DNA of 64,000 nucleotides from Spirosoma montaniterrae (GTDB lineage: Bacteria > Bacteroidota > Bacteroidia > Cytophagales > Spirosomataceae), in assembly GCF_001988955.1 (NCBI RefSeq), contig NZ_CP014263.1, forward strand, positions 4,682,001-4,746,000, read 5' to 3'. The number at the start of each line of letters is the position of its first letter. The first letter of the stretch is position 1. The notes beneath the pieces were generated by a model, which searched no databases, was not told the origin of the DNA, and was given only the letters and a program-made list of their open reading frames with translations. The translations under genes and the position numbers were made by a program. Shown in pieces: positions 22,263-57,883 of the stretch.

Positions 22263-24086
22263 CTACAGAGCCTGCTGTTCAGTAAACATCTCAATACCAA
22301 TTGCCTGCATCAACTGGCTGGCGTTGAAACTGGTACAGATGCCGTCGCGCAACGTATAATCGAATACTAACTCGCCGTTAGTCAAATCAGATTGGAAATG
22401 GTAGTTACGTACAAATTCGCTGGCGTCGGTGAGTTGGCCGAGTTCGAGGTCGTGGGTCGAAACGAAGCCCGACGCTGTAGTTTTGTGCAACTGCCGAATC
22501 AGAGCTTCGGCTCCCCGGTGGCGGTCGGCAGAGTTCGTACCTTTCAAAATTTCGTCTAAGAAGTATAAAACTGGCAGGTGTCTCTGCGAAGCAGAACGCT
22601 GTTGCTTCGTGAGCTTAATCAACGTTTTCAGCCGGAGTAGTTCCGCATAAAACGACGACGTACTTTCTTCGAGCGAATCCTGTGTGCGCATACTTGTGAA
22701 CACCCGCACGGGCGAACACCGGAACGATTCGGCACTGACCACCGCACCTGCCAGTGCCAGCACTACATTGGCCCCCACCGTGCGTAGAAATGTACTTTTT
22801 CCTGACATATTCGAACCGGTAATCAGCACCGTTTGGCCCGAACCTTCCAGCGAAAGCGAATTGGCAACGCTGCGGTCGGGGGGCAAAAGCGGATGAACTA
22901 CCTGCATCATGTCGAGCTGAATGGAGCCGTCTACGATGTTGGGCGTGGCGTACTGCGGGTGCGCGTAGGCAAAACCAGCCAGACTATTGAGGGCTTCGAG
23001 TTCGGCCAGAGCCTCGAACCAGCGACTAAGGTGCGGGCCGTATTGCTGCCGCCAGCGTTCGAGCCGAAACAAATAATGAATGTCCCAAAGTGTGGGCAGG
23101 CCGAGCAACAGCGAGAAATAAGCGTTGCGTCGGTAGTTCAGGGCTTCGGTCAGCCACGCCAGTTGGCCGATAGCTTTCGAGGCTGTTAGGTTATCAGAGG
23201 TCAATGCTTTGCGAATGGCTTGCAGCCGTAGCGCGTCGCCTTTAACGGTTTCGGCCTGACCGAATAAACTCCGGTAGGCACCCAGCGCGGTTGAGATGGT
23301 GAAGGTTTGTTCGCTCAGCTCTTTTGCCCGGTTAGCGGTCTGACTCAGCAAAAACCCATGAGCCGCCAAACCAGCCAGCACAGCCGCGCCGGGTACATAA
23401 CCTGATAACCAGGCAATAAACAACGCCAGTGTAACGGCGGGCAACCCAAACCGCAGGACGTTCAGGAAAGCAGGTAGCGGAGTTCCCTCGGCAGTAGCCC
23501 AGCTAACGAGCGTTTCGGGCGAACGGCCAATGGTTTCTTCCTGATAGGCCAATACCTCAAACCGTTGCCGCCACTCAAGTTGGGGCGTCAAATCGGCCAC
23601 GGCCAACTGCCGTAAGTGTATGGCATCGGGCAATGACGGATTCAGCAGCCACTGTGCCAGCCGGTTTTCGCCCTCGTGCGTATGTGTCCGGTTCAGAAGT
23701 CGAAACAGCGATTGCCGCCCGAATACGTCGAGGTCGCTGCTGTAGGAATGCGCTGGATTCACGAATCGCTGGTCCATCTCCGGGCGCAGGTACTGCCGGT
23801 TGAGCCGGGCCGCTTCGTCCTGATTGATAAACGCCAGATGCCGGTTTAGTTCGCGTTCCTGCCGTATCTGCTGATGCTTTTTCAGCAATGCCAGAAAGCC
23901 CACAATGCCCGCTAACAAGGCCACAACCGCTCCCGTTTGCTGGTCGGCCCGCGCCAGCAACCAAACGATAATAACTGCCCCAAAAAACCAGAGAATCCGC
24001 CAGAACGCCAGTTGGTTATATCGCCGTTGAGCGGCTTGTCCGGCTTGCTGAAATTGCTGTTGACGGACGGAAAAGGTATCGGACAT
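22263..24086 (-). CDS. Membrane-anchored MutS-family ATPase
   Basis: A 607-residue MutS homologue. The ATPase core is plain: ITGSNMSGKSTFLRTVGANVVLA (Walker A, quoted in parts TGSNMSGKS), YFLDEILKGTNSADR (Walker B and signature) and STHDLELGQL. The mismatch-reading domain I is absent, and the N-terminus has two hydrophobic helices (about 28-45 and 50-68), with another pair near residues 210-245. It is thus neither MutS1 nor MutS2 (no Smr domain). Function unknown. The ATG is two bases after a repeat element that separates it from the fur-like gene. Confidence 0.88.
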   Translation of the reverse strand: MSDTFSVRQQQFQQAGQAAQRRYNQLAFWRILWFFGAVIIVWLLARADQQTGAVVALLAGIVGFLALLKKHQQIRQERELNRHLAFINQDEAARLNRQYLRPEMDQRFVNPAHSYSSDLDVFGRQSLFRLLNRTHTHEGENRLAQWLLNPSLPDAIHLRQLAVADLTPQLEWRQRFEVLAYQEETIGRSPETLVSWATAEGTPLPAFLNVLRFGLPAVTLALFIAWLSGYVPGAAVLAGLAAHGFLLSQTANRAKELSEQTFTISTALGAYRSLFGQAETVKGDALRLQAIRKALTSDNLTASKAIGQLAWLTEALNYRRNAYFSLLLGLPTLWDIHYLFRLERWRQQYGPHLSRWFEALAELEALNSLAGFAYAHPQYATPNIVDGSIQLDMMQVVHPLLPPDRSVANSLSLEGSGQTVLITGSNMSGKSTFLRTVGANVVLALAGAVVSAESFRCSPVRVFTSMRTQDSLEESTSSFYAELLRLKTLIKLTKQQRSASQRHLPVLYFLDEILKGTNSADRHRGAEALIRQLHKTTASGFVSTHDLELGQLTDASEFVRNYHFQSDLTNGELVFDYTLRDGICTSFNASQLMQAIGIEMFTEQQAL

Positions 24087-24088
24087 AC

Positions 24089-24155
24089 GTAACGCGGCTG
24101 TAAAGCCGCTTTGTTTCGCACTGCTCTGTTACTTACGGCTTTCCAGCCGCGTTAC
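24089..24155. repeat. GTAA-headed inverted-repeat element, copy A
   Basis: GTAACGCGGCTGTAAAGCCG (24089-24108) and its near-exact inverse (24136-24155) are separated by 27 bases. Each arm is itself a small palindrome (GCGGCT ... AGCCG). The right end, read on the minus strand, begins GTAA and its TAA is the stop codon of the Fur-family gene; the left end is two bases from the ATG of the mutS-like gene. Same element as 54683-54752 and 55143-55206. Confidence 0.85.
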
Positions 24156-24565
24156 TGATTACACCCTTGACAAACGCCCTGAATGAGCAGGTTCATTTCT
24201 TTGCGGGCGTAGCCGTCGGGCAGGGCAATGGCCGGGATATGAACGCCGTCTAAGCAGGTGGTTTGGCCGCAGGTTTCGCACTTGAAATGTACGTGGTCGT
24301 GATGGTGGTGGCCTTCGGTGCAGGTTTCACGGCAGAGGGCATATTTGGTGCCGCCTTCATCGTCCAGCACCTTGTGAATCAGGCCCACGTCCAGAAACGT
24401 CCGCAGCGTTCGGTAGATCGTTACGCGGTCGTGGTCAGGGCCGAGGCCACTCTCCACGTCGCTATGCGCCAGCGCGTGACCGGCGTTCAGAAACAAATCC
24501 AGCACTTCTTCCCGGCCACTCGTGTGCCGCAGGTTGAAGGTTTTGAGCGTTTGGGCAGCGGTCAT
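24152..24565 (-). CDS. Fur-family transcriptional regulator
   Basis: A 137-residue metal-responsive repressor. The winged helix has DRVTIYRTLRTFLDVGLIHKV, the DNA-reading helix of Fur/Zur/PerR. A His-rich stretch GHHHHDHVHFKC precedes CETCG (Cys96 and Cys99), and VCQGC (Cys132 and Cys135) ends the protein, giving the structural zinc site. Whether it senses iron, zinc or peroxide cannot be decided. It lies between an ABC exporter and a MutS homologue, set off by a repeat element on each side. Confidence 0.93.
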   Translation of the reverse strand: MTAAQTLKTFNLRHTSGREEVLDLFLNAGHALAHSDVESGLGPDHDRVTIYRTLRTFLDVGLIHKVLDDEGGTKYALCRETCTEGHHHHDHVHFKCETCGQTTCLDGVHIPAIALPDGYARKEMNLLIQGVCQGCNQ

Positions 24566-24584
24566 GGTTTTAGTGAACCTTTGT

Positions 24585-24680
24585 GTAGAGACGCAGGATA
24601 TTGCGTCTCACTCGCGTCAGTAATTTTCACCAACCGGAAAAATTATCCGGCGGCTAAGACGCAATATCTTGCGTCTCTAC
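24585..24680. repeat. GTAG-headed inverted-repeat element
   Basis: Left arm 24585-24608 and right arm 24657-24680 are inverted copies with one mismatch in 24; each begins GTAG and contains its own palindrome AGACGCAA-GATA-TTGCGTCT. A further small hairpin (CCGGA...TCCGG) lies between the arms. The GTAG of the right arm provides the TAG stop of the ABC exporter. The layout is that of paired REP sequences. Confidence 0.85.
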
Positions 24681-26482
24681 TCTATTGTTTCAAACTGCAA
24701 TTTAACCAGATTGGCGTAAATGCCGTCTTCGTATAAAGCCAGTTCGTCGTGGGTGCCCTGTTCGGCAATCAGGCCGTCGCGTAGCACGTAAATCTGATCG
24801 ACCTTCCGAATCGTTGCCAGCCGGTGAGCAATAATAATCGTCGTGCGGTTTTGCATCAACTCGTCCAATGCGTCTTGCACCAAGCGTTCGGACTCGGCGT
24901 CGAGCGAACTCGTTGCTTCGTCGAGAATCAAAATCGCCGGGTCTTTCAGAATGGCGCGGGCAATGGCAATGCGCTGCCGCTGACCACCCGATAGTTTAAC
25001 ACCGCGTTCGCCCACAATGGTTTGCAGACCGTCGGGAAAGGTGTCGATAAACTGGAGTGCGTTGGCTTTGCGGGCTGCTTCGCGTACTTCGGCTTCCGTT
25101 GCACCCGGTTTGCCGTACTGAATATTCTCAAAAATTGTACCGCCAAACAGCATTACTTCCTGCGGCACCACGGCGATGTTCTTCCGTAACTCGGTCACGT
25201 TAAAGCTCGTCAGGTCGCGGCCATCGACGGTTATCTGCCCGCTGCCGCGTTCGTAATACCGCATCAGCAACTGCACAATGGTCGATTTACCGGCTCCGCT
25301 CTGACCTACGAGCGCGATTTTCCGTCCGGCGGCTACGTCGAGCGAAATGCCGCGCAGCACCGGCATATCGGGCCGCGACGGGTACGAAAACTGCACATTC
25401 TGAAACCAGACGTGGCCCTGTACCGGCACAAACAACGGTGTCTGTTCGTCGGCGTTCACTTCCGATGATTCGTCTAAAATCTCCAGAATCCGCTCCGACG
25501 CGCCGATTGTCTTCTGAATCTGCGCGTACATGTCGCCCATCCCCGCCACCGAGCCGCCAATGAAGGCGGTGTAGAAAATAAACGACAACAAATCGGCAAA
25601 TGGAATTTCGCCCGATTGCACCAGTATACCGCCGTACCAGACAATCGCCATGATGCCGCCGAACATAGTCGAGATGATGAACGACACAAAAATGCCCCGG
25701 TACGTTGCTGTTTTCAAGGCCGTATCGACCATCAGCCCCAGTGCCGAACCGTAGCGATTAATCTCTATCCGCTCGTTCGTGAACGCTTTTACGACGTTGA
25801 TCGATTGCAACGTTTCTTCGACAATCACGCTTGCAGCCGCCAGCAAATCCTGCGCCCGCTTCGACAGTTTACGGATGAACCGCCCGAAAAACATGGCCGC
25901 CACGATGATCACCGGGAAGGTCGCCAGCATGAATAGCGTCAGTTTCCACGACACGTAGAAGATGAAAATCGTACCGCCGATGAGCGTGGCCACCTGCCGA
26001 AACAGTTCGGCAATCGTAATCGAAAGCACGTCCTGCAATTGCGACACGTCGGCAGAAATACGGCTTGTCAGTTCGCCCACGCGCCGTTTCTCGAAAAACG
26101 GAATCGGCAGCGTGATAATTTTGGCGTACACGGCCTTGCGGACGTCGGCCATTGAGCGTTCGCTGACCTGCGCCGAGAAGTAGATTCGCAGGAACGAGAA
26201 CAGAGCCTGCAAAATCAGGATACCCGCAAAAATCAGAATCACCTGATTGAGCGTAAACGGCGACTGCCCCTGAATTACCTTTGTCACCTGCCCAATCAGA
26301 GCCGGGAAGCTGAGCGTCGTAGCTGTTGAGAGAGCCAGAAAAATAGCTCCCAGTATGAATTGTGTGCGGTAGGGCCGCACAAAACGGAAAATCCGCAGGG
26401 TCTTTTTCAGGCCCTCACGATCTAATTTTCCTTTATCCTGTTCCGGTGTTTCTTCGCCGAAACTTCGTGTTCGTTTTGCCAT
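24677..26482 (-). CDS. ABC exporter, fused permease and ATPase (MsbA-like)
   Basis: A 601-residue half-transporter that works as a dimer. Six membrane helices (about residues 45-320), then the nucleotide-binding domain: GQSGAGKST (Walker A), LSGGQRQRIAIARA (signature), ILILDEATSSLD (Walker B) and IIAHRLATIRK (switch His). Start taken at the ATG at 26482 (MAKRTRS); an upstream ATG at 26521 lies inside gldB. MsbA-type exporters move lipids or drugs outwards; the substrate here is unknown. Four bases separate it from gldB. Confidence 0.93.
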   Translation of the reverse strand: MAKRTRSFGEETPEQDKGKLDREGLKKTLRIFRFVRPYRTQFILGAIFLALSTATTLSFPALIGQVTKVIQGQSPFTLNQVILIFAGILILQALFSFLRIYFSAQVSERSMADVRKAVYAKIITLPIPFFEKRRVGELTSRISADVSQLQDVLSITIAELFRQVATLIGGTIFIFYVSWKLTLFMLATFPVIIVAAMFFGRFIRKLSKRAQDLLAAASVIVEETLQSINVVKAFTNERIEINRYGSALGLMVDTALKTATYRGIFVSFIISTMFGGIMAIVWYGGILVQSGEIPFADLLSFIFYTAFIGGSVAGMGDMYAQIQKTIGASERILEILDESSEVNADEQTPLFVPVQGHVWFQNVQFSYPSRPDMPVLRGISLDVAAGRKIALVGQSGAGKSTIVQLLMRYYERGSGQITVDGRDLTSFNVTELRKNIAVVPQEVMLFGGTIFENIQYGKPGATEAEVREAARKANALQFIDTFPDGLQTIVGERGVKLSGGQRQRIAIARAILKDPAILILDEATSSLDAESERLVQDALDELMQNRTTIIIAHRLATIRKVDQIYVLRDGLIAEQGTHDELALYEDGIYANLVKLQFETIE

Positions 26483-26486
26483 TGTT

Positions 26487-27470
26487 TTATTCCGTCTGCC
26501 CCTTATATCCCGACTGTTCAAAAATCTGCCGGGTGTCGGCGTTACGCATCAGGTCGGCAATGCTGACATTGTTGCGTTCGTCGTGATACCGCCCCACAAT
26601 CCGCCAGCCGAGCCACCGACCGATGGCACCGGGGCAGGCCGGGCCGATTTCTGCCGTAAAGGGCCGTTCGTTCAAATATCGTTGTTTTATGGCCGGATTT
26701 GTTTGATATAGCAACTGATTATCAATAAAATGCGCCCAAACAATATCCTGCGCGTTAAACGTTTCGGTCAGTTGCTTGTCTGTATAACCGACAATTAAGC
26801 TATCGGCCACCTCGGGCAACATGGTTTTTGTAAAGACAAACCCTTTTCCATAATACACCATGTCGGCCAGCATGGTTTGGTCGGTGCGGTTCGTGGCATT
26901 GTATTTGTCAGAGATGGCGAAGACGATAGCCGGTACGATGTAATCTTTTTGATATCGGCGTAGAATGTACTGTGGATATTCTGGTCCCTGCGGACGGTAT
27001 TTGGCAGTCGGCCCGGCGAAGTAATCAAGCCCAATGACGATCAGACTGTCAGTAACGACCAAATCAGGCCCTGTAAAGCCCGTCACGATGGTTGCAATGC
27101 GGGGCACCCGGAAGTCGGGGAAGTCTTTTTTGATGTTGGTAAAGGCTTCGGCCAACTGATTTTTCAGGTCGGTCATGTCGCCAAACTCGGCCTGTACCTG
27201 TTGATTCAGTTCGTTCAGAGCCGGATTGTTGACCCGGTTGGTCAATTCCCGGACAAGGGCTGTATCAGAACCAGCCTCATTCGCGTTAAAGTACAATTGA
27301 ACTACGCCGGGGTTGCGATTCAGAAACGCCCGGATACCATTGGCCGACTTGTCGGCGAAAAGTTGCTGATCGAGCCGAAGTAGCGTAACGTCTTCTTTTT
27401 TAGAACACGAGACCAGAAAAAACAAGCAAAAAAGGCCCAGCGGGGCCATCCACAATCGCATCGACATCAT
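26487..27470 (-). CDS. gldB: Gliding motility lipoprotein GldB
   Basis: A 327-residue lipoprotein (lipobox LVSC at the end of a short signal peptide) of the GldB family, an envelope protein needed for gliding and for the type IX secretion apparatus in Flavobacterium. Family stretches seen: LRLDQQLFADKSANGIRAFL, IGLDYFAGPTAKYRPQGP and ILRRYQKDYIVP, then GKGFVFTKTMLPEVADS and EIGPACPGAIGRWLGW near the end. Non-gliding Bacteroidota also carry it. It is the first gene of the minus-strand run and divergent from a PorT-like gene. Confidence 0.88.
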   Translation of the reverse strand: MMSMRLWMAPLGLFCLFFLVSCSKKEDVTLLRLDQQLFADKSANGIRAFLNRNPGVVQLYFNANEAGSDTALVRELTNRVNNPALNELNQQVQAEFGDMTDLKNQLAEAFTNIKKDFPDFRVPRIATIVTGFTGPDLVVTDSLIVIGLDYFAGPTAKYRPQGPEYPQYILRRYQKDYIVPAIVFAISDKYNATNRTDQTMLADMVYYGKGFVFTKTMLPEVADSLIVGYTDKQLTETFNAQDIVWAHFIDNQLLYQTNPAIKQRYLNERPFTAEIGPACPGAIGRWLGWRIVGRYHDERNNVSIADLMRNADTRQIFEQSGYKGQTE

Positions 27471-29997: not shown

Positions 29998-30004
29998 ATA
30001 GTTT

Positions 30005-30086
30005 AAACGCAGAGGGGCAGAGGTTTACGCAGAGTTCGCAAAGTAGTCTCTGTGTGCTCTGCGTAAACCTCTGCCCCTCTGCGTTT
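30005..30086. repeat. Perfect 30-bp inverted repeat of CGCAGAGG-like units
   Basis: Arms 30005-30034 and 30057-30086 are exact inverses around a 22-base loop. The arm contains GCAGAGGG GCAGAGGT, an 8-base near-repeat like that of the element beyond hisF. It fills the space between hisH and hisA, which belong to the same pathway and direction. Confidence 0.85.
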
Positions 30087-30089
30087 GAA

Positions 30090-30692
30090 TCAAAGTTTCA
30101 AAAAGTTCTCTAAAATGGTTTGCCCGGCGTTGCCGCTTATTTCGGCGTGAAACTGGGCGGCATAAAAATTGTCGCGGTGAAGCATCGCGCTGAATGGGCG
30201 TACGTAATCGCAAACCGCCGTAGTTTCGGGACAAACGTCGGCGGCATAGCTGTGTACGAAATACACGTAGGCGTTTTCGGGAAGCCGCTCGGTCAGCGGA
30301 CCGCGTAGGGTATGAATGTTGTTCCAGCCCGTGTGCGGCACTTTCAGCCGTTGACCGTTCAACACGCCATCGGTAGGGAACCGACGCACGTCGATATCGA
30401 AAATACCCATGCAGGTCGTGTTGTTTTCTTCCGAATGGCGGCACATCAACTGCATCCCAACGCAGGTGCCCAGCACCGGCTGTTTCAGGCTCGGTATCAG
30501 TTTGTCCAGTCCACGCTGGCGCAGGTAGGCCATTGCTGTGCTGGCCTCGCCAACGCCCGGAAAAATAACTTTGTCGGCAGAGCGGATTTCGGCTTCGTCG
30601 TCGGTAAGCAGGTAGGGTGCGCCCAGCCGGTCGAGGGCAAACATCACCGACTGCACATTGCCCGCGTTGTATTTAATAATTACGGTTTTCAT
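30090..30692 (-). CDS. hisH: Imidazole glycerol phosphate synthase, glutaminase subunit
   Basis: A 200-residue class I glutamine amidotransferase that feeds ammonia to HisF. Start at the ATG at 30692 (MKTVIIKYNAGN), the family start; the open frame runs much further upstream but only antisense to nadC. Seen: FPGVGEAS, the nucleophile elbow VLGTCVGMQLM with its Cys, HTGWNNI, VYFVHSYA, and the catalytic His-x-Glu in AAQFHAEISG (H and E of the triad). First gene of hisH-hisA-hisF. Confidence 0.96.
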   Translation of the reverse strand: MKTVIIKYNAGNVQSVMFALDRLGAPYLLTDDEAEIRSADKVIFPGVGEASTAMAYLRQRGLDKLIPSLKQPVLGTCVGMQLMCRHSEENNTTCMGIFDIDVRRFPTDGVLNGQRLKVPHTGWNNIHTLRGPLTERLPENAYVYFVHSYAADVCPETTAVCDYVRPFSAMLHRDNFYAAQFHAEISGNAGQTILENFLKL

Positions 30693-49102: not shown

Positions 49103-50506
49103 ATGCACATTCTTCAGCAAATTTTATTCGTAGCAGCTTTAGCCGTAGCAGCCTGGTTCGTTACGAAGCGCGTGAAACTGATTGCACGGGCCATCAATTT
49201 AGGTCGCCCCGAAGACCGGACCGACAACCCCGGCGAACGCTGGCGCACGACGCTGTTGGTAGCTTTCGGGCAAAAGAAAATGTTCACCAATCTGCTCGTG
49301 GGCGTAATGCACTTCGTCATTTATGCCGGGTTCATTATCATCAACCTCGAAATTTTAGAGATTATTTTAGATGGCATTTTGGGTACGCACCGACTGTTTG
49401 CGCCCTACATCACACCCATCTATCCGTTTCTGATCAACGTCTTTGAGGTGCTGGCATTCGGCGTTCTGGCCGTTTGTGTCGTTTTTCTGACGCGCCGGTT
49501 CGTTGCCCGCGTAAGCCGATTGCAGGCCGAGCGGCACCGCGAACTGCGCGGTTTCTCAATTCCTGATGCCACAATTATTCTGACCGCCGAAATTATCCTG
49601 ATGATTGCCTTCCTGACCTGGAATGCATCTGACAGTGTGCTGCGCGACCGGGGTGTGGGCTATTACGGCGACTTGCAGGGTGTTGTGCCGGATTTCCTGA
49701 TTAGCCAGTACCTGAAGCCACTGTTTGCCGGGTTCAGTGATACCGCACTGGTAGCCTACGAGCGCGTGTCGTGGTGGTTGCATATCCTTGGTATTCTGGC
49801 ATTTGCCGTGTACGTGACTTACTCGAAACACCTGCATATTGCGCTCGGCTTCCCGAACGTGTATTTCTCGGACCTGCAACCTAAAGGCGAAATGCAGAAC
49901 ATGCCCGCCGTGACGAAGGAAGTGCAACTGATGCTCGGCTTGCCGGTTACGACCGAACCCGATGGCTCACAGGCTAACGACAACGGTATGCAACCCGCCG
50001 AAGCTACGTCGGGCGAGTCCACACCAGACGAAATCGGGCGTTTTGGCGCGAAAGACGTGTATGACCTGAAATGGATCAACCTCATGAACGCGTACAGTTG
50101 TACCGAATGTGGTCGCTGTACGGCGGCTTGCCCGGCCAATATAACCGGCAAAAAACTGTCGCCCCGCAAAATCATGATGGACACCCGCGACCGGCTCGAA
50201 GAGATTCAGCGCGGCTGGCAAACCAACGGCGTCGATTATAAAGACGAAAAATCATTGCTGGGCGACTACATTACCGCCGAAGAACTGAACGCCTGCACCA
50301 CCTGCCAGGCATGTATTAATGCCTGCCCCATCAACATCAATCCGCTCGATATTATTCTGCAATTGCGCCGGTATAGGGTCATGGAAGAGTCGCAGGCTCC
50401 GGCATCCTGGAACGCCATGTTCAGCAATATCGAAAACAATATGGCTCCCTGGAAATTCTCGCCCAGTGACCGGTTCAACTGGGCCGAAATGGTAAATGAG
50501 AAGTAG
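49103..50506 (+). CDS. Membrane-bound (Fe-S) electron-transfer protein
   Basis: A 467-residue protein with five or six membrane helices in the first 260 residues (one with paired His, as in heme-b NarI-like domains) and a cytoplasmic ferredoxin-like domain: CTECGRCTAACP and CTTCQACINACP, two 4Fe-4S clusters. It belongs to the heterodisulfide-reductase-like group that moves electrons between quinone and a soluble partner. Its partner is the CCG-domain protein downstream; donor and acceptor are unknown. An inverted repeat with an 8-base period lies between the two. Confidence 0.92.
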   Translation: MHILQQILFVAALAVAAWFVTKRVKLIARAINLGRPEDRTDNPGERWRTTLLVAFGQKKMFTNLLVGVMHFVIYAGFIIINLEILEIILDGILGTHRLFAPYITPIYPFLINVFEVLAFGVLAVCVVFLTRRFVARVSRLQAERHRELRGFSIPDATIILTAEIILMIAFLTWNASDSVLRDRGVGYYGDLQGVVPDFLISQYLKPLFAGFSDTALVAYERVSWWLHILGILAFAVYVTYSKHLHIALGFPNVYFSDLQPKGEMQNMPAVTKEVQLMLGLPVTTEPDGSQANDNGMQPAEATSGESTPDEIGRFGAKDVYDLKWINLMNAYSCTECGRCTAACPANITGKKLSPRKIMMDTRDRLEEIQRGWQTNGVDYKDEKSLLGDYITAEELNACTTCQACINACPININPLDIILQLRRYRVMEESQAPASWNAMFSNIENNMAPWKFSPSDRFNWAEMVNEK

Positions 50507-50594
50507 TTGTAAAGTTGTAGCGTTATAAAGTTGTAGAGTTGGCTCCGCCATCATCCGTCAACTTTGTAACGCTATAACTTTACAACTCTACAAC
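50506..50594. repeat. Inverted repeat with 8-base period, copy 1
   Basis: The left arm (50506-50541) reads GTTGTAAA GTTGTAGC GTTATAAA GTTGTAGA GTTG; the right arm (50559-50594), read in inverse, gives GTTGTAGA GTTGTAAA GTTATAGC GTTACAAA GTTG. Both are the same 8-base unit with small changes. It starts on the last base of the upstream stop codon. A second copy is at 54008-54102. Confidence 0.85.
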
Positions 50595-50600
50595 TTGATA

Positions 50601-51404
50601 ATGATGACAACTGAAAAAACATACACCGTGCCGACAATGGCCGACATGATGGCCGCTGGCGACGAACCTGAGGTCTTGTTCTGGGTTGGTTGTGCTGGTT
50701 CGTTCGATGATCGGTACAAGCGCGTTACTGTTGCGTTCGTGCGCATCCTGAACCACGTAGGTATCAAGTTTGCCGTACTCGGCCCCGAAGAAGCCTGCAC
50801 TGGCGACCCGGCCCGGCGGGCGGGCAACGAATTTCTGTTTCAGATGCAGGCCATGAGCAATATCCAGGTGCTGAACGGCTACAACGTAAAGAAAATCGTG
50901 ACGGCCTGCCCGCACTGTTTCAATACACTCAAAAACGAGTATCCCGAACTGGGCGGTAACTACGAAGTGATTCACCACTCCACTTTTCTCCAGGGACTAA
51001 TTGACGAAGGCCGCATTCGCGTGAAAGATGGGCAGTCGTTCAAAGGCCGTAAAATCACGTTCCATGACTCGTGCTATTTAGGCCGGGCCAATAAAATTTA
51101 CGAAGCTCCGCGCGAGGTGCTGGCTGCATTAGACGCCGATCTGGTCGAGATGAAGCGCGTAAAAGCGAACGGCCTTTGCTGCGGAGCGGGTGGCGGTCAG
51201 TATTTTAAGGAGCCGGAACCGGGCAACAAAGACGTGAACGTAGAGCGCGTGCAGGAAGCGTTGGCTACCGGTGCCGACACCATCGCCGTGTCATGCCCGT
51301 TTTGTATGACGATGATGTCGGACGGAGTGAAGAACCAGAACCGCGAAGACAGCGTTCGGGTCTATGATATCTCCGAGCTAATCGCGCAGGGGGAAGGACT
51401 TTGA
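50601..51404 (+). CDS. CCG-domain (Fe-S)-binding protein (HdrB/GlpC-like)
   Basis: A 267-residue cytoplasmic protein with two CCG domains, as in heterodisulfide reductase subunit B and GlpC. Seen: LFWVGCAGSFDDR, CPHCFNTLKNEYP, FHDSCYLGR and LCCGAGGGQYF, VSCPFCMTMM, the cysteines that hold special Fe-S clusters. ATG at 50601 chosen (TTG at 50595 also in frame). It forms an electron-transfer unit with the preceding membrane protein. Substrate unknown. Confidence 0.93.
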   Translation: MMTTEKTYTVPTMADMMAAGDEPEVLFWVGCAGSFDDRYKRVTVAFVRILNHVGIKFAVLGPEEACTGDPARRAGNEFLFQMQAMSNIQVLNGYNVKKIVTACPHCFNTLKNEYPELGGNYEVIHHSTFLQGLIDEGRIRVKDGQSFKGRKITFHDSCYLGRANKIYEAPREVLAALDADLVEMKRVKANGLCCGAGGGQYFKEPEPGNKDVNVERVQEALATGADTIAVSCPFCMTMMSDGVKNQNREDSVRVYDISELIAQGEGL

Positions 51405-51492
51405 CAGTGAACCGCCAACAGCGAGCAGCCAACAGTTAATCGTACTGAGTGGACATCTCACTGTTGGCTGTTGGCTGCTAACTGTTGACTGA
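51405..51492. repeat. Inverted repeat with 7-base period
   Basis: Left arm: AACCGCC AACAGCG AGCAGCC AACAGTT. The right arm (51458-51492) in inverse: AACAGTT AGCAGCC AACAGCC AACAGTG. It fills the gap from the CCG-gene stop to just before the next ATG at 51495. Confidence 0.8.
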
Positions 51493-51494
51493 AT

Positions 51495-53403: not shown

Positions 53404-54003
53404 TTGGACGGCAAACTCATTATCTTCTCGGCTCCTTCGGGGTCTGGCAAAACCACCATCGTCAAGCATTTGCTGGCCGGGAACGCAAATCTCGGCTTTT
53501 CTATTTCGGCCTGCACCCGCGACCGCCGGGGTCGCTCAGAGGAAAATGGTAAAGATTATTATTTTCTGACACCCGAAGAGTTTAAGCAGAAAATTGATAA
53601 TCACGAGTTTGTAGAGTGGGAAGAGGTGTATGTTGGCGCATTTTATGGCACATTAAAGTCTGAAATCGAACGGCTGTGGGCGGCTGGTAAACACGTACTG
53701 TTCGATGTTGACGTAAAGGGTGGCCTAAAACTAAAAGAATATTATGGCGACAAGGCACTGGCGGTTTTCGTGAAGGTTCCCGATGAAGAAACCCTCCGTC
53801 AACGCCTGATTGGACGCGGTTCTGAAACGGAAGAAAGCCTGTCGAAACGGCTGTTTAAAGTGCATTTCGAGATGAGTTTTCAGAATGAATTCGACGTTAT
53901 TTTAGTCAACGACGATCTGGAAACCTCATACCGCAAAGCCCAGCAATTGGTCGACGATTTTGTCAGAGAAGGCAAAATGCCCGCCAAAGGAACGGTTATT
54001 TGA
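53404..54003 (+). CDS. gmk: Guanylate kinase
   Basis: A 199-residue enzyme that phosphorylates GMP to GDP. The start is a TTG ([18 protein letters not shown] in literal reading, initiated as Met); no ATG exists upstream in frame, since a stop lies close by. Seen: P-loop [10 protein letters not shown], the GMP-binding stretch [49 protein letters not shown] and [16 protein letters not shown] lid. Full length for the family. Confidence 0.96.
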
Positions 54004-54007
54004 CAGA

Positions 54008-54102
54008 GTTATAGAGTTGTAGGGTTATATGGTTGTAAAGTTGGGCTGTAGCCTTCTTTTGCGAAGCAACCCTACAATGGTATAACCCTACAACGGTACA
54101 AC
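54008..54102. repeat. Inverted repeat with 8-base period, copy 2
   Basis: Left arm: GTTATAGA GTTGTAGG GTTATATG GTTGTAAA GTTG; right arm (54067-54102) in inverse: GTTGTACC GTTGTAGG GTTATACC ATTGTAGG GTTG. Same unit type as at 50506-50594. It fills the gap between the gmk stop and the nadD ATG. Confidence 0.85.
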
Positions 54103-54107
54103 TACTG

Positions 54108-54682: not shown

Positions 54683-54752
54683 GTAATGCGGCTGGAAAGC
54701 CGCTCGTCTATTCAAGTTAATGTGTTTACCGGCGGCTTTCCAGCCGCATTAC
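54683..54752. repeat. GTAA-headed inverted-repeat element, copy B
   Basis: GTAATGCGGCTGGAAAGCCGC (split as GTAATGCGGCT and GGAAAGCCGC, 54683-54703) and its exact inverse (54732-54752) surround 28 bases. Each arm is a stem GCGGCT/AGCCGC around a GGAA or TTCC loop. It begins three bases after the nadD stop and ends eight bases before the stop of the convergent lipoprotein gene. Confidence 0.9.
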
Positions 54753-54759
54753 ACATCAC

Positions 54760-55140
54760 TTACGGTATCCCGTTCTGGAACGTAATTTCGGTGGCTAAAC
54801 CGATGGCACTGAATCGGATTGCTACCGAACGGCTTCGTGATTTGGCACCGGCTTTATCGCATTGCGGGCCTTTTTGCAGAAAATAAATGTAAAATTTCTG
54901 ATTCCGGTCAGCAATCTGATTAACGTCGGGCCGACCCAGCAGTTCGCCGATGGAGTTGGCTGTTTTGCCCCGGATGTTTTCTATTTCAGCGCGGAAGTCA
55001 GGTTCGAGCGCGGCCCGCACACCGTTGCACCCCCCCCGGTCGCCCCGCCATTTTTTCAGGTCGAGTTTGCCAAGCTGATCTGGTGCGGGACCGCAGGCTG
55101 TGAGGAGAATGCTTACTATAATGGTAGTGAGTGGGCGCAT
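54760..55140 (-). CDS. Small hypothetical lipoprotein
   Basis: A 126-residue lipoprotein from the ATG at 55140 (MRPLTTIIVSILLTACG, lipobox LTAC). The mature part has DLKKWRGDRGGCNGVR, then LLGRPDVNQIADRNQKFYIYFLQKGPQC, recalling small Bacteroidota lipoproteins with BamE/SmpA-like features (a short helix, then the LGRPD turn and a beta strand), though this is only a resemblance. The ATG lies two bases after a repeat element that separates it from the M28 gene. Confidence 0.8.
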   Translation of the reverse strand: MRPLTTIIVSILLTACGPAPDQLGKLDLKKWRGDRGGCNGVRAALEPDFRAEIENIRGKTANSIGELLGRPDVNQIADRNQKFYIYFLQKGPQCDKAGAKSRSRSVAIRFSAIGLATEITFQNGIP

Positions 55141-55142
55141 AC

Positions 55143-55206
55143 GTAATGCGGCTGGAAAGCCGCTTCTTCCTAAATCTTTACAAAAGCGGCTTCCCAGCCG
55201 CGTTAC
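55143..55206. repeat. GTAA-headed inverted-repeat element, copy C
   Basis: The left arm (55143-55163) is identical to that of copy B; the right arm (55186-55206) differs at two positions. It fills the gap between the M28 stop (one base away) and the ATG of the lipoprotein gene (two bases away), as copy A does between the fur-like and mutS-like genes. Confidence 0.9.
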
Positions 55207-55207
55207 A

Positions 55208-56227
55208 CTACTCATTATAGATCACCTGCAAAACAGTTTGTCCAACGGCTTTGAGCGTGGCCCGGTCAATGTTGCTCATATCGTCTTCGGCGGTGTGCCA
55301 GGCCGGAAAGAAGCCGCCTGTACCAATGTTGGTATGAATAATATCAATCATCGGAATTTTAGCGATGGTGTTGGGAGCTACGTGGTCGTCCATGATAGCA
55401 CTGCCAGGGGTATCAACAAAGTACTGACTATAGCCCAGCCGACTGGCGGTTTGCCATATGTTGTTTGTTACGTTGGGAGCGAACTGCATGGAGTGGCCCT
55501 CTTTAGGAAACGTTGCGCTTTTGGCTCCAACCATATCGAGCAGAATGCCGTAATAGGCCGAATAGCCCGGCTTGTGGGGGTTTTTGGCCCAGTAGCGCGA
55601 CCCAAGACAGAAGCCCATGTAATCGTACTGATTGCCACTTGCTTGCTCAAAGTCATCTTTTACTTTTTCGCCACTGCCCCAGTCTTCGGCGTCGAAGAAA
55701 ATAATGTCGATGCCTACGCCGGGTTTCTGTTGCGCCTGCTGAATGGTTCGGGCCAGTTCGAGTAACACGCCCACCCCACTTGCGCCGTCGTTGGCGGCTG
55801 TTACGGGCTTGTTTTTATCGGCAGCATCAGGATCGTTGTCGGCGTGCGGGCGCGAATCCCAGTGGCTCGCCAGCAAAATTCGTTTGGTAGCCTGCGGATT
55901 GATGCTGCCGATGATGTTGCGGGCGTTCAGCTTCTTCCCGTCCCAGGTGGTTGCCACAAAATTCTGTTCCGTCACCGTACAGCCAAACTGCTTTAACTTA
56001 GAAACCAGATAATTACCGGCGTCAACGTGTGCGGGCGTATTAGGTACGCGAGGGCCAAAAGCCACCTGCTTGTCAATATAGGCATAGGCCGAGTCGGCGT
56101 TGAAAGCGGGGGCTGTCACCTGAGCGGGCTGTTCGTTGGTTTGCGTCGCGTCGGTCTGCTTTGGTTTTTCGCGGCAGGCCGAAATGGTTAAGGCCAGAGC
56201 CAGGAAAAAAATTGTGGACTTAGTCAT
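55208..56227 (-). CDS. M28-family peptidase / glutaminyl-peptide cyclotransferase-like lipoprotein
   Basis: A 339-residue lipoprotein from the ATG at 56227 (lipobox ISAC). The catalytic domain has LLASHWDSRPHADND, AANDGASGVGVLLELAR, IIFFDAEDWG, SAYYGILLDMVG, DDHVAP and HTNIGTGGFFPAWHT, the metal ligands His, Asp, Glu and His of M28. The HWDSRP-ADND and DAEDWG forms are those of bacterial type II glutaminyl cyclases (as in Porphyromonas), which cyclise N-terminal Gln of exported proteins. I favour that, but an aminopeptidase is possible. Confidence 0.9.
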   Translation of the reverse strand: MTKSTIFFLALALTISACREKPKQTDATQTNEQPAQVTAPAFNADSAYAYIDKQVAFGPRVPNTPAHVDAGNYLVSKLKQFGCTVTEQNFVATTWDGKKLNARNIIGSINPQATKRILLASHWDSRPHADNDPDAADKNKPVTAANDGASGVGVLLELARTIQQAQQKPGVGIDIIFFDAEDWGSGEKVKDDFEQASGNQYDYMGFCLGSRYWAKNPHKPGYSAYYGILLDMVGAKSATFPKEGHSMQFAPNVTNNIWQTASRLGYSQYFVDTPGSAIMDDHVAPNTIAKIPMIDIIHTNIGTGGFFPAWHTAEDDMSNIDRATLKAVGQTVLQVIYNE

Positions 56228-57719: not shown

Positions 57720-57772
57720 GTCGCGAAATTACGCATTCCGGTTTGGAAAACGGCGAACCCACTCAAGTTCGC

Positions 57773-57780
57773 TATCTTTG
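57773..57780 (+). promoter_or_regulatory. Candidate -7 box for the acetyltransferase-like gene
   Basis: TATCTTTG fits TAnnTTTG, about 100 bases before the ATG at 57884 and before a long hairpin element, which would thus be in the transcribed leader. Confidence 0.4.
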
Positions 57781-57792
57781 CTGGAATTTTTA

Positions 57793-57878
57793 GTGAAAAG
57801 TGAAGAGTGAAAAATGCAAAGTGCCTGCAAGTTCGGGGCGTTATTCATTTTTCACTTTGCATTTTTCACTCTTCACTT
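57793..57878. repeat. Inverted repeat with 7-base period
   Basis: The left side reads GTGAAAA GTGAAGA GTGAAAA ATGCAAA GTG; 25 bases of it (57799-57823) have an exact inverse at 57853-57877, with GTGAAAA ATGAATA continuing the unit. It lies between cysS and the ATG at 57884, close enough to hide the ribosome-binding region. Confidence 0.85.
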
Positions 57879-57883
57879 GAAAG

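What the first reader, a model, noticed from the sequence alone, without database searches (positions are those of the whole stretch)
24084..24155. Repeat element that supplies a stop codon at one end and abuts the next start codon at the other
Copy A of the GTAA element fills the gap between the Fur-family and mutS-like genes exactly. Read on the minus strand, the GTAA head forms the TAA stop of the Fur-family gene, and the ATG of the mutS-like gene follows the other end by two bases (ACGTATG). Copy C at 55143-55206 does the same between the M28 and lipoprotein genes: stop one base away and the same ACGTATG junction. Seen directly. I infer that these elements act as stop-start punctuation in operons and set the translation-initiation context of the downstream gene.
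Basis: partly seen in the sequence, partly recalled or inferred. Interest (0 to 1): 0.72.

Follow-up and report, generated by a model that had tools for sequence, protein, structure and literature searches.

The report
Mobile hairpins wedged between genes
A small hairpin-forming mobile DNA element in a Spirosoma bacterium sits so tightly between neighbouring genes that one end often carries the stop signal of the first gene and the other ends two to four letters before the next gene begins; the fit is real and recurs in related species, but related genes mostly keep the same ends without it, so a role as genetic punctuation is unproven.

Summary
The "GTAA element" is a REPIN: two head-out REP palindromes (GTAACGCGG[C/G]TGGAAA[G/C]CCGC). 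About 70 elements were found in this Spirosoma genome, and a RAYT transposase gene is flanked on both sides by the same doublets. In G000, stops lie within 14 bp of 56/71 stop-facing ends, and in 25/71 the head itself supplies the stop. Starts lie within 6 nt of 22/51 start-facing ends. Pooled over this genome and four congeners, start spacing peaks at 2-4 nt (37 of 59 within 0-14 nt; native gaps 10 of 39). A second REPIN family with another stem shows the same pattern.

The punctuation reading is only partly supported. Congeners without a match to this REP in the gap often keep the stop at the same codon (33/46; 16/29 without the fur-mutS gap) and an ATG within 4 codons (45/51). Convergent gaps show similar packing. 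At 4 of 13 testable junctions the element probably replaced the last 1-4 codons. Hairpins of unrelated families also occupy many Spirosoma gene junctions and differ between congeners in the same gap. REPs supplying stop codons is published; the start spacing was not found in my searches. Best reading: mobile hairpins packed at gene edges, with plausible but unproven effects on translation.

The parts
24089..24155 (.). REPIN copy A (67 bp) between the Fur-family gene (24152-24565, -) and the mutS-like gene (22263-24086, -)
   Evidence: folds as RNA to -36 kcal/mol, z -5.7
24089..24109 (+). REP arm, GTAA head facing the mutS-like start codon
   Evidence: 1 mismatch
24135..24155 (-). REP arm whose head GTAA contains the TAA stop of the Fur-family gene
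24152..24154 (-). TAA stop codon of the Fur-family gene, inside the head
24084..24086 (-). ATG of the mutS-like gene, 2 nt from the element end
54683..54752 (.). REPIN copy B (70 bp) between convergent genes, 2 and 7 nt from their stops
   Evidence: RNA fold z -8.1
55143..55206 (.). REPIN copy C (64 bp): M28 peptidase stop (TAG, 55208-55210) 1 nt from one end, ATG of the small gene (55138-55140) 2 nt from the other
   Evidence: RNA fold z -7.7
24566..24679 (-). Next gap upstream in the same run of genes, with an unrelated hairpin family (TAGAGACGCAA...TTGCGTCTCTA) whose end contains the TAG stop of the 24677-26521 gene

Best explanation
The element is a REPIN, a non-autonomous doublet of GTAA-headed REP palindromes. 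It is (inferred) mobilised by a Y1/HUH transposase of the RAYT family encoded at G000:C1:3915014-3915598. Copies end up at gene edges, often packed close to the limit on both sides. On the stop side the element overlaps the gene as far as it can while its own stop, or the old stop at the same codon, still ends the gene. On the start side it comes as close as 2-4 nt to the ATG, so the base of its GC stem lies about 7-9 nt upstream. The most likely cause (inferred) is insertion at or next to stop codons and into short gaps, loss of copies that damage coding sequence or gap interiors, and perhaps trimming of spare DNA around retained copies. The resulting mRNA hairpin, from the stop codon to just before the next AUG, probably alters termination, re-initiation or mRNA stability at some junctions, but that effect need not be why the elements are there. 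Shown: identity, RAYT linkage, position rule, pre-existing stops and starts in many relatives. Inferred: mobility here, trimming, effect on translation.
For: Identity: 123 REP arms with up to 4 mismatches in the fetched stretches group into 70 elements: 49 head-out pairs, 2 triplets, 19 singles. Arms of one element match each other at the variable head base (38/49 against 26.9 shuffled) and at the variable stem base (46/49 against 24.3), so the doublet is one unit. RAYT: NCBIfam NF047646 95 bits against cut-off 80; Pfam Y1_Tnp; PDB 4er8 TnpArep E 7e-10. REP doublets flank it on both sides. In one search, 12 of 29 distinct RAYT-relative loci show REP-like heads on both sides, with stems that differ between them. 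Position: (start spacing 0:0, 1:1, 2:16, 3:9, 4:12, 5:2, 6:4, 7:1, 8:1). Edge placement also in convergent gaps (8/15 both ends within 14 bp in G000, 5/12 in G004) and in G000 divergent gaps (5/5 within 14 nt of a start, P 4.5e-4). Stops and starts exist without the element. An empty-site case: at 2684861 congeners G001 and G006, with no REP there, end the upstream gene in ATGA at the next gene's start.
Against: Trimming and insertion preference were not separated: no close strain pair was available (best mutS-like identity 74%), so few true empty sites could be read. Copies closer to consensus are not looser (mean mismatches per arm 1.13 in tight, 0.88 in other elements), which speaks against slow trimming. 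A plain GTAA/TTAC target does not explain the position: among 1541 such sites in control gaps, 13.4% of those facing a stop are at -4 and 3.7% of those facing a start are within 6 nt, against 35% and 43% observed. The start preference is weaker outside G000 and G042: divergent elements within 14 nt of a start are 3 of 8 in the other four data sets, and tandem elements with a distant stop that lie within 8 nt of the start are 2/10 in G004 (0.7 expected), 0/5 in G046 and 0/1 in the G042/G023 loci. Given its own gap, a detected stem is not nearer the start than random placement (REP 7 observed, 9.2 expected within 8 nt; other hairpins 12 against 18.1), so start contact comes mainly from which gaps hold elements.
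Confidence: 0.64

Rival explanations
1. Punctuation: the elements are kept because they provide the stop and set the initiation context of the next gene.
For: Both ends fit in many tandem gaps (20/41 in G000 and 11/33 in G004 with both ends within 14 bp). Sharp 2-4 nt start spacing not seen in native G000 tandem gaps (37/59 against 10/39, Fisher P 3e-4). Shine-Dalgarno-like motif in only 1.5% of 686 starts, so other upstream features could matter more.
Against: Stops and starts pre-exist in many relatives. Similar packing in convergent gaps. The N2-4 bases are not conserved. In Flavobacterium johnsoniae, lower pairing around the start goes with better translation (PMC6847099, passages).
Confidence: 0.13
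2. Stop-start clasp or insulator: the long hairpin controls coupling. A ribosome ending at the 5' foot melts the stem base and frees the AUG at the 3' foot, or the hairpin blocks re-initiation like a ribosome termination structure. Any palindrome family can serve, so families replace each other in one gap.
For: Predicted stem runs from the stop region to near the start in copies A and C and in several congeners at fur-mutS, for example a perfect 24-bp stem in G009 (z -11.4). At fur-mutS, REP-like doublets, terminator-like hairpins and another palindrome family alternate among congeners. Inverted repeats unrelated to this REP occur in 39/183 non-REP tandem and 38/58 convergent gaps of 30-150 nt but in 1/34 divergent. 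Hairpins just after stops inhibit re-initiation in a synthetic operon (PMC7518266, abstract and passages).
Against: At fur-mutS, 7 of 23 folded gaps have weak structure (z above -1.5; one of them, G002, was folded on a shortened gap), and one further gap was too long to fold. Convergent gaps show similar packing without any downstream start. The published structures are depleted, not enriched, at short gaps. No expression data.
Confidence: 0.15
3. Transcription terminators or mRNA 3'-end protectors that are simply near stops, as for REPs elsewhere.
For: Stop proximity in tandem and convergent gaps. Five congeners carry terminator-like hairpins (stem plus T run) in the fur-mutS gap (L102, L103, L106, L109, L121). 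REPs near 3' ends of ORFs are published (PMC3733652).
Against: No T run follows the stem in copies A and C and the next ATG is 2 nt away, leaving no room for a new promoter after the stem. Start-abutting copies occur where the stop is far (G000 4/7 within 8 nt against 0.8 expected; G042 stretches 4/4), though rarely in G004 (2/10) and not in G046 (0/5).
Confidence: 0.08

Closest known systems
REPINs and RAYTs / TnpAREP (Pseudomonas, E. coli, Stenotrophomonas; PMC3116915 and PMC8266576, passages)
   Same: Inverted REP doublets, mainly extragenic, with a head next to each palindrome; a RAYT gene flanked by the doublets.
   Different: Head is GTAA in 107 of 123 arms instead of GTAG; ends often abut start codons at 2-4 nt. 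PMC3116915 describes doublets as randomly distributed in extragenic space.
GTAG REPs that supply stop codons (Di Nocera et al. 2013, PMC3733652, sections 14 and 15 read)
   Same: They report that GTAG REP ends often provide the TAG stop of flanking ORFs and that REPs lie close to 3' ends.
   Different: Here mostly TAA; and they report varying distances from the downstream ORF, while here the start side has a sharp 2-4 nt mode.
Ribosome termination structures (PMC7518266, abstract and passages)
   Same: Stable mRNA structure immediately after the stop codon.
   Different: Not defined as repeats, and depleted when the next gene is close; here hairpins occupy the gap up to the next start.
TAACTGA intergenic repeats of Beggiatoaceae and some Bacteroidetes (PMC4679880, abstract and passages)
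   Same: Repeats containing stop codons placed a few nt before starts, sometimes overlapping the upstream stop.
   Different: Direct heptamer repeats, not palindromic REP doublets; the abstract names no mobilising mechanism.

Membership tests
REP / REPIN | Short palindrome preceded by a conserved tetranucleotide, usually GTAG | tested here: inconclusive
   Palindrome present; head is GTAA 107/123, GTAG 9/123. A variant head, so the strict GTAG or GTGG rule is not met by most arms.
REP / REPIN | Two REPs in inverted orientation with a short spacer, forming one hairpin | tested here: met
   49 of 70 elements are head-out pairs, spacer 13-94 bp, median 24; folds
REP / REPIN | Many copies, mainly outside genes | tested here: met
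   61 of 70 outside called genes
REP / REPIN | Linked RAYT gene flanked by the same REPs | tested here: met
   G000:C1:3914874-3914949 and 3915602-3915676 flank the RAYT
REP / REPIN | Mobilised by the RAYT | not testable with these tools
   No close strain pair; bench assay needed
RAYT (REP-associated tyrosine transposase) | Passes the curated family model | tested here: met
   NF047646 95 bits, cut-off 80
RAYT (REP-associated tyrosine transposase) | HUH motif and catalytic tyrosine in one Y1 domain | tested here: met
   NHVH and YIIHNP in P0001, read by eye against the motif table passage; Y1_Tnp match at 79-170
Intrinsic transcription terminator | Stem followed by a T run | tested here: not met
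   Copies A and C are followed by GTATG on the coding strand
Ribosome termination structure | Stable structure directly after the stop that lowers re-initiation | tested here: inconclusive
   Structure predicted; effect on re-initiation not testable here

The most novel reading that the evidence does not exclude
In Spirosoma, junctions between genes are slots where interchangeable mobile palindromes are captured. A REPIN or another hairpin running from the stop codon to a fixed short distance before the next AUG folds so that stop and start lie side by side at its foot, acting as a clasp that couples or insulates translation in a genome without Shine-Dalgarno sequences. Repeat families compete for, and replace each other in, this one slot.
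Probability: 0.17. Interest if true: 0.8.

Novelty: new variant of a known kind. Interest (0 to 1): 0.53.

Why it matters
It adds a GTAA-headed REPIN-RAYT set in Bacteroidota with a placement rule not found in the papers searched: the start codon 2-4 nt from the end, on top of the known stop-side contact. The same slot in one gap (fur-mutS) is held by different hairpin families in different congeners. That makes two old questions testable in one genus: do REPs affect translation of the next gene, and is placement set by insertion or by selection?

Tried and rejected
A plain GTAA/TTAC target site was tested as the sole cause of the position and rejected. Slow trimming of old copies only: copies closer to consensus are not looser. 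Placement within a given gap as the cause of start contact: not supported, since a detected stem is moderately biased to the stop side (within 8 nt: REP 15 against 10.1 expected, other hairpins 37 against 23.9) but not to the start side; which gaps hold elements matters more. Start calls as an artefact: checked with in-frame ATGs, which raises start contact within 8 nt to 26/51 in G000 and 14/37 in G004, and with orthologues. Fold z-scores of gaps as a signal specific to the element: non-element gaps in G000 are also strongly folded (median z -2.36, n 209), which led to the wider hairpin finding. Not run: structure prediction, the large protein search, Rfam, an E. coli control of start spacing, a search for target duplications.

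Limits of the counts. Genes come from a codon-usage caller written here, not from a curated annotation. Control gaps come from stretches chosen around REPs. Searches listed 100 of 107 and 100 of 101 hits, so a few copies may be missing. 17 REP hits with 5 mismatches were dropped before pairing. 9 of 70 elements lie inside called genes and were left out of distance counts, three of them complete doublets (350155, 2770371, 5781019). For G004, 48 elements in 40 stretches were measured (47 between genes); two planned stretches and elements first listed were not fetched. For G046 30 of 92 hits came with loci. For G042/G023, 30 loci plus 20 G042 stretches were used, against 145 hits. Orthologous gaps were found for 23 of 61 elements. 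'REP-less' means no match to this REP with up to 5 mismatches near the gene end, so diverged REP-like palindromes can be counted as REP-less (for example G014 and G017 at fur-mutS). The start-spacing histogram uses the caller's starts and leaves out negative values. The long fur-mutS gap of G021 was left out of the folding, so 23 gaps were folded.

Papers: PMC3733652 outline, sections 14 and 15 and passages; PMC8266576, PMC3116915, PMC6006769 and PMC6847099 passages; PMC7518266 and PMC4679880 abstract and passages. All others only as search listings. The E. coli work on REPs close to stops and translation (Liang, Rudd and Deutscher) is recalled, not seen. No paper on start-side spacing of REPs turned up in searches, in an open-licence library only.

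Full report
What was checked. The element at 24089-24155 and its sister at 55143-55206 are as described, with small corrections given under the observation check. A third copy at 54683-54752 lies between convergent genes. The neighbours are a Fur-family regulator, a MutS-domain protein, an M28 peptidase and a nucleotidyltransferase-like protein; the 126-residue gene beside copy C has no Pfam match.

What it is. The genome is a single contig of 5,797,678 bases. It belongs to Spirosoma: congeners G009, G010 and G046 have contigs of exactly the length of named records of S. validum, S. sordidisoli and Spirosoma sp. 48-14, and these three are the nearest named relatives of the mutS-like protein at 68-72% identity. 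The pattern GTAACGCGGCTGGAAAGCCGC occurs 107 times with up to 3 mismatches and its sister stem GGGTGGAAACCC 101 times (overlapping sets), with no match for the reversed controls. In the fetched stretches 123 arms with up to 4 mismatches form 70 elements: 49 head-out pairs, 2 triplets, 19 singles. The two arms of an element agree at variable positions beyond shuffles, so the doublet is the unit. One Y1 transposase gene (G000:C1:3915014-3915598) is flanked on both sides by these doublets. It passes the NCBIfam model for REP-associated tyrosine transposases and its only PDB match at E up to 0.1 is TnpArep, 4er8. Two other Y1 transposase genes in the genome lie away from the listed REPs. In the genus, 19 of 36 genomes have a relative of the RAYT at E up to 1e-20. 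Of 29 distinct loci, 12 show REP-like heads on both sides of the gene, and the stems differ between them, for example GGACATCCTGTCC in G042 and G023. This is a REPIN-RAYT system with a GTAA head.

Where it sits. Distances were measured with a gene caller written for the purpose. In G000, 61 of 70 elements lie between called genes: 41 tandem, 15 convergent, 5 divergent. Stop-facing ends are within 14 bp of the stop in 56/71 (null per gap 35.5%), supply the stop in 25/71 (6.4%), and both ends are within 14 bp in 28/61 (16.4%) (binomial P values between 1e-13 and 5e-7). G004: 39/57, 13/57 and 16/47. The second REPIN family in the G042 stretches: stop within 14 bp 22/28, start within 8 nt 8/18, both within 14 bp 8/23. 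In the smaller samples, G046 gives 14/24, 4/16 and 6/20, and the G042/G023 loci 19/26, 4/14 and 8/20; there the start-side excess over the per-gap null is small (25% against 18%, and 29% against 19%). Counting in-frame ATGs that the caller had passed over, 26/51 start-facing ends in G000 and 14/37 in G004 have a start within 8 nt.

The start side is sharp. Pooled over five data sets, the distance from the element to the called start is 2, 3 or 4 nt in 37 of the 59 cases between 0 and 14, never 0 and once 1. Native G000 tandem gaps without a REP have 10 of 39 there (Fisher P 3e-4). Since five bases (GTTAC) lie between the GC stem and the element edge, the stem base is about 7-9 nt from the AUG. 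For unrelated hairpins in G000 tandem gaps, 21 of 71 lie 7-13 nt and 5 of 71 lie 0-6 nt from the start (list). Start contact is partly independent of the stop: in G000 divergent gaps 5 of 5 elements are within 14 nt of a start (P 4.5e-4), and in tandem gaps with a distant stop 4 of 7 are within 8 nt of the start against 0.8 expected; the G042 stretches give 4 of 4. Against this, G004 gives 2 of 10, G046 0 of 5 and the G042/G023 loci 0 of 1, divergent elements elsewhere 3 of 8, and a stem placed at random in its own gap would be near the start as often as observed.

Orthologous gaps. Gene ends beside 27 elements were sought in three congeners without matches to this REP at up to 1 mismatch, and with the other loci in hand 23 elements could be compared. 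Where the head supplies the stop, relatives with no match to this REP in the gap have the stop at the same codon in 33 of 46 cases and within 3 codons in 45 of 46. Seventeen of these come from fur-mutS; without it the figures are 16 and 28 of 29. Where the stop lies just outside the element, 34 of 39 keep the codon. Four of 13 junctions differ consistently: at 2684861, 697107, 5224381 and 5422613 the relatives are 1-4 codons longer, and at 2684861 two of them end in ATGA. There the element plausibly cut the upstream gene short and supplied its stop. An ATG is at the same codon in 27 of 51 and within 4 codons in 45 of 51 (27 and 31 of 37 without fur-mutS). So the element often adopts ends that already exist.

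One gap across the genus. The fur-mutS gap was read in 24 Spirosoma genomes (23 folded). By eye, REP-like doublets with the stop in one foot and the start 2-4 nt beyond the other are clear in G000, G009, G016 and G017, with a short remnant in G014 and partial or decayed forms in G004, G007, G008, G010, G013, G015 and G020. Five congeners carry a terminator-like hairpin there, four (G005, G019, G021, G023) a different palindrome (TTTTGTCATGCTGA...), and G024 and G011 show little structure. G000 and G004 share six element-bearing gaps; I estimate roughly that fewer than one would be expected from copy and gap numbers, but no call computed this.

A wider pattern. Non-REP gaps in this genome also hold long hairpins of unrelated repeat families. 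An inverted repeat with a perfect 12-bp seed occurs in 39/183 tandem and 38/58 convergent non-REP gaps of 30-150 nt but in 1/34 divergent ones. The other four Spirosoma examined give 10-33% of tandem gaps, G028 of the same order 6/35, and G033 0/40; letter-shuffled gaps gave none. Convergent cases will include ordinary terminators. In the window, the gap at 24566-24679, next to copy A, holds such a hairpin whose end contains the TAG stop.

How it most likely works. Insertion by the RAYT and survival mainly at gene edges explain most of the data. A plain GTAA target is not enough. Whether packing comes from insertion or from later trimming is open. The predicted mRNA consequence is a strong stem from stop to start, which on published grounds could hinder re-initiation or new initiation (PMC7518266, PMC6847099, passages). 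The clasp reading, in which the terminating ribosome opens the stem foot and frees the AUG, fits tandem junctions but not convergent or divergent ones, and is kept as the novel case.

Comparison and novelty. REP ends supplying stop codons are published for GTAG REPs (PMC3733652, section 15), with varying distances to the downstream ORF. The GTAA head and the start spacing are the new parts. This is a new variant of a known kind.

Noticed in passing
window 24566-24679: A different hairpin family (TAGAGACGCAA...TTGCGTCTCTA) occupies the next gap in the same run of genes; its outer end contains the TAG stop of the gene at 24677-26521. A related copy lies at G000:C1:4649101.
   Followed up: partly
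window 50504-50600, 51402-51494, 54001-54107: Three more tandem gaps with long near-perfect hairpins of low-complexity families (TTGTAAAGTTGTAG..., CAGCCAACAG...), starting -2 to 12 nt from the stop and ending 7-13 nt before the next start.
   Followed up: partly
window 29998-30434 and 57720-57883: Divergent gaps in which a long hairpin (AAACGCAGAGGGGCAGAGG...; AAGTGAAGAGTGAAAAATG...) lies 7 and 5 nt from a start codon, so start-side contact is not limited to REPINs.
   Followed up: no
G000:C1, for example 25853, 512688, 4628174, 1041521: Several hairpin families have a 5' arm rich in TGA/ATG/GTG (GTTGAATGATTGAGTG, AGTGATGAGTGATGAA) on the mRNA strand, in the examples read by eye; orientation was not counted.
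   Followed up: no
G000:C1:350155-350213, 2770371-2770431, 5781019-5781079: Three complete REPIN doublets inside called genes.
   Followed up: no
L254, L259, L262, L265, L266 (G039, G014, G041, G043, G023): RAYT relatives flanked by another, longer REP type (GTAGTACCGACCGTCCCGGTCGG).
   Followed up: no
L248/L269 (G004:C1:5894005-5894585): The RAYT relative of G004 is interrupted (one in-frame TAA, two pieces in different frames) although the genome has 72 hits to the REP pattern.
   Followed up: no
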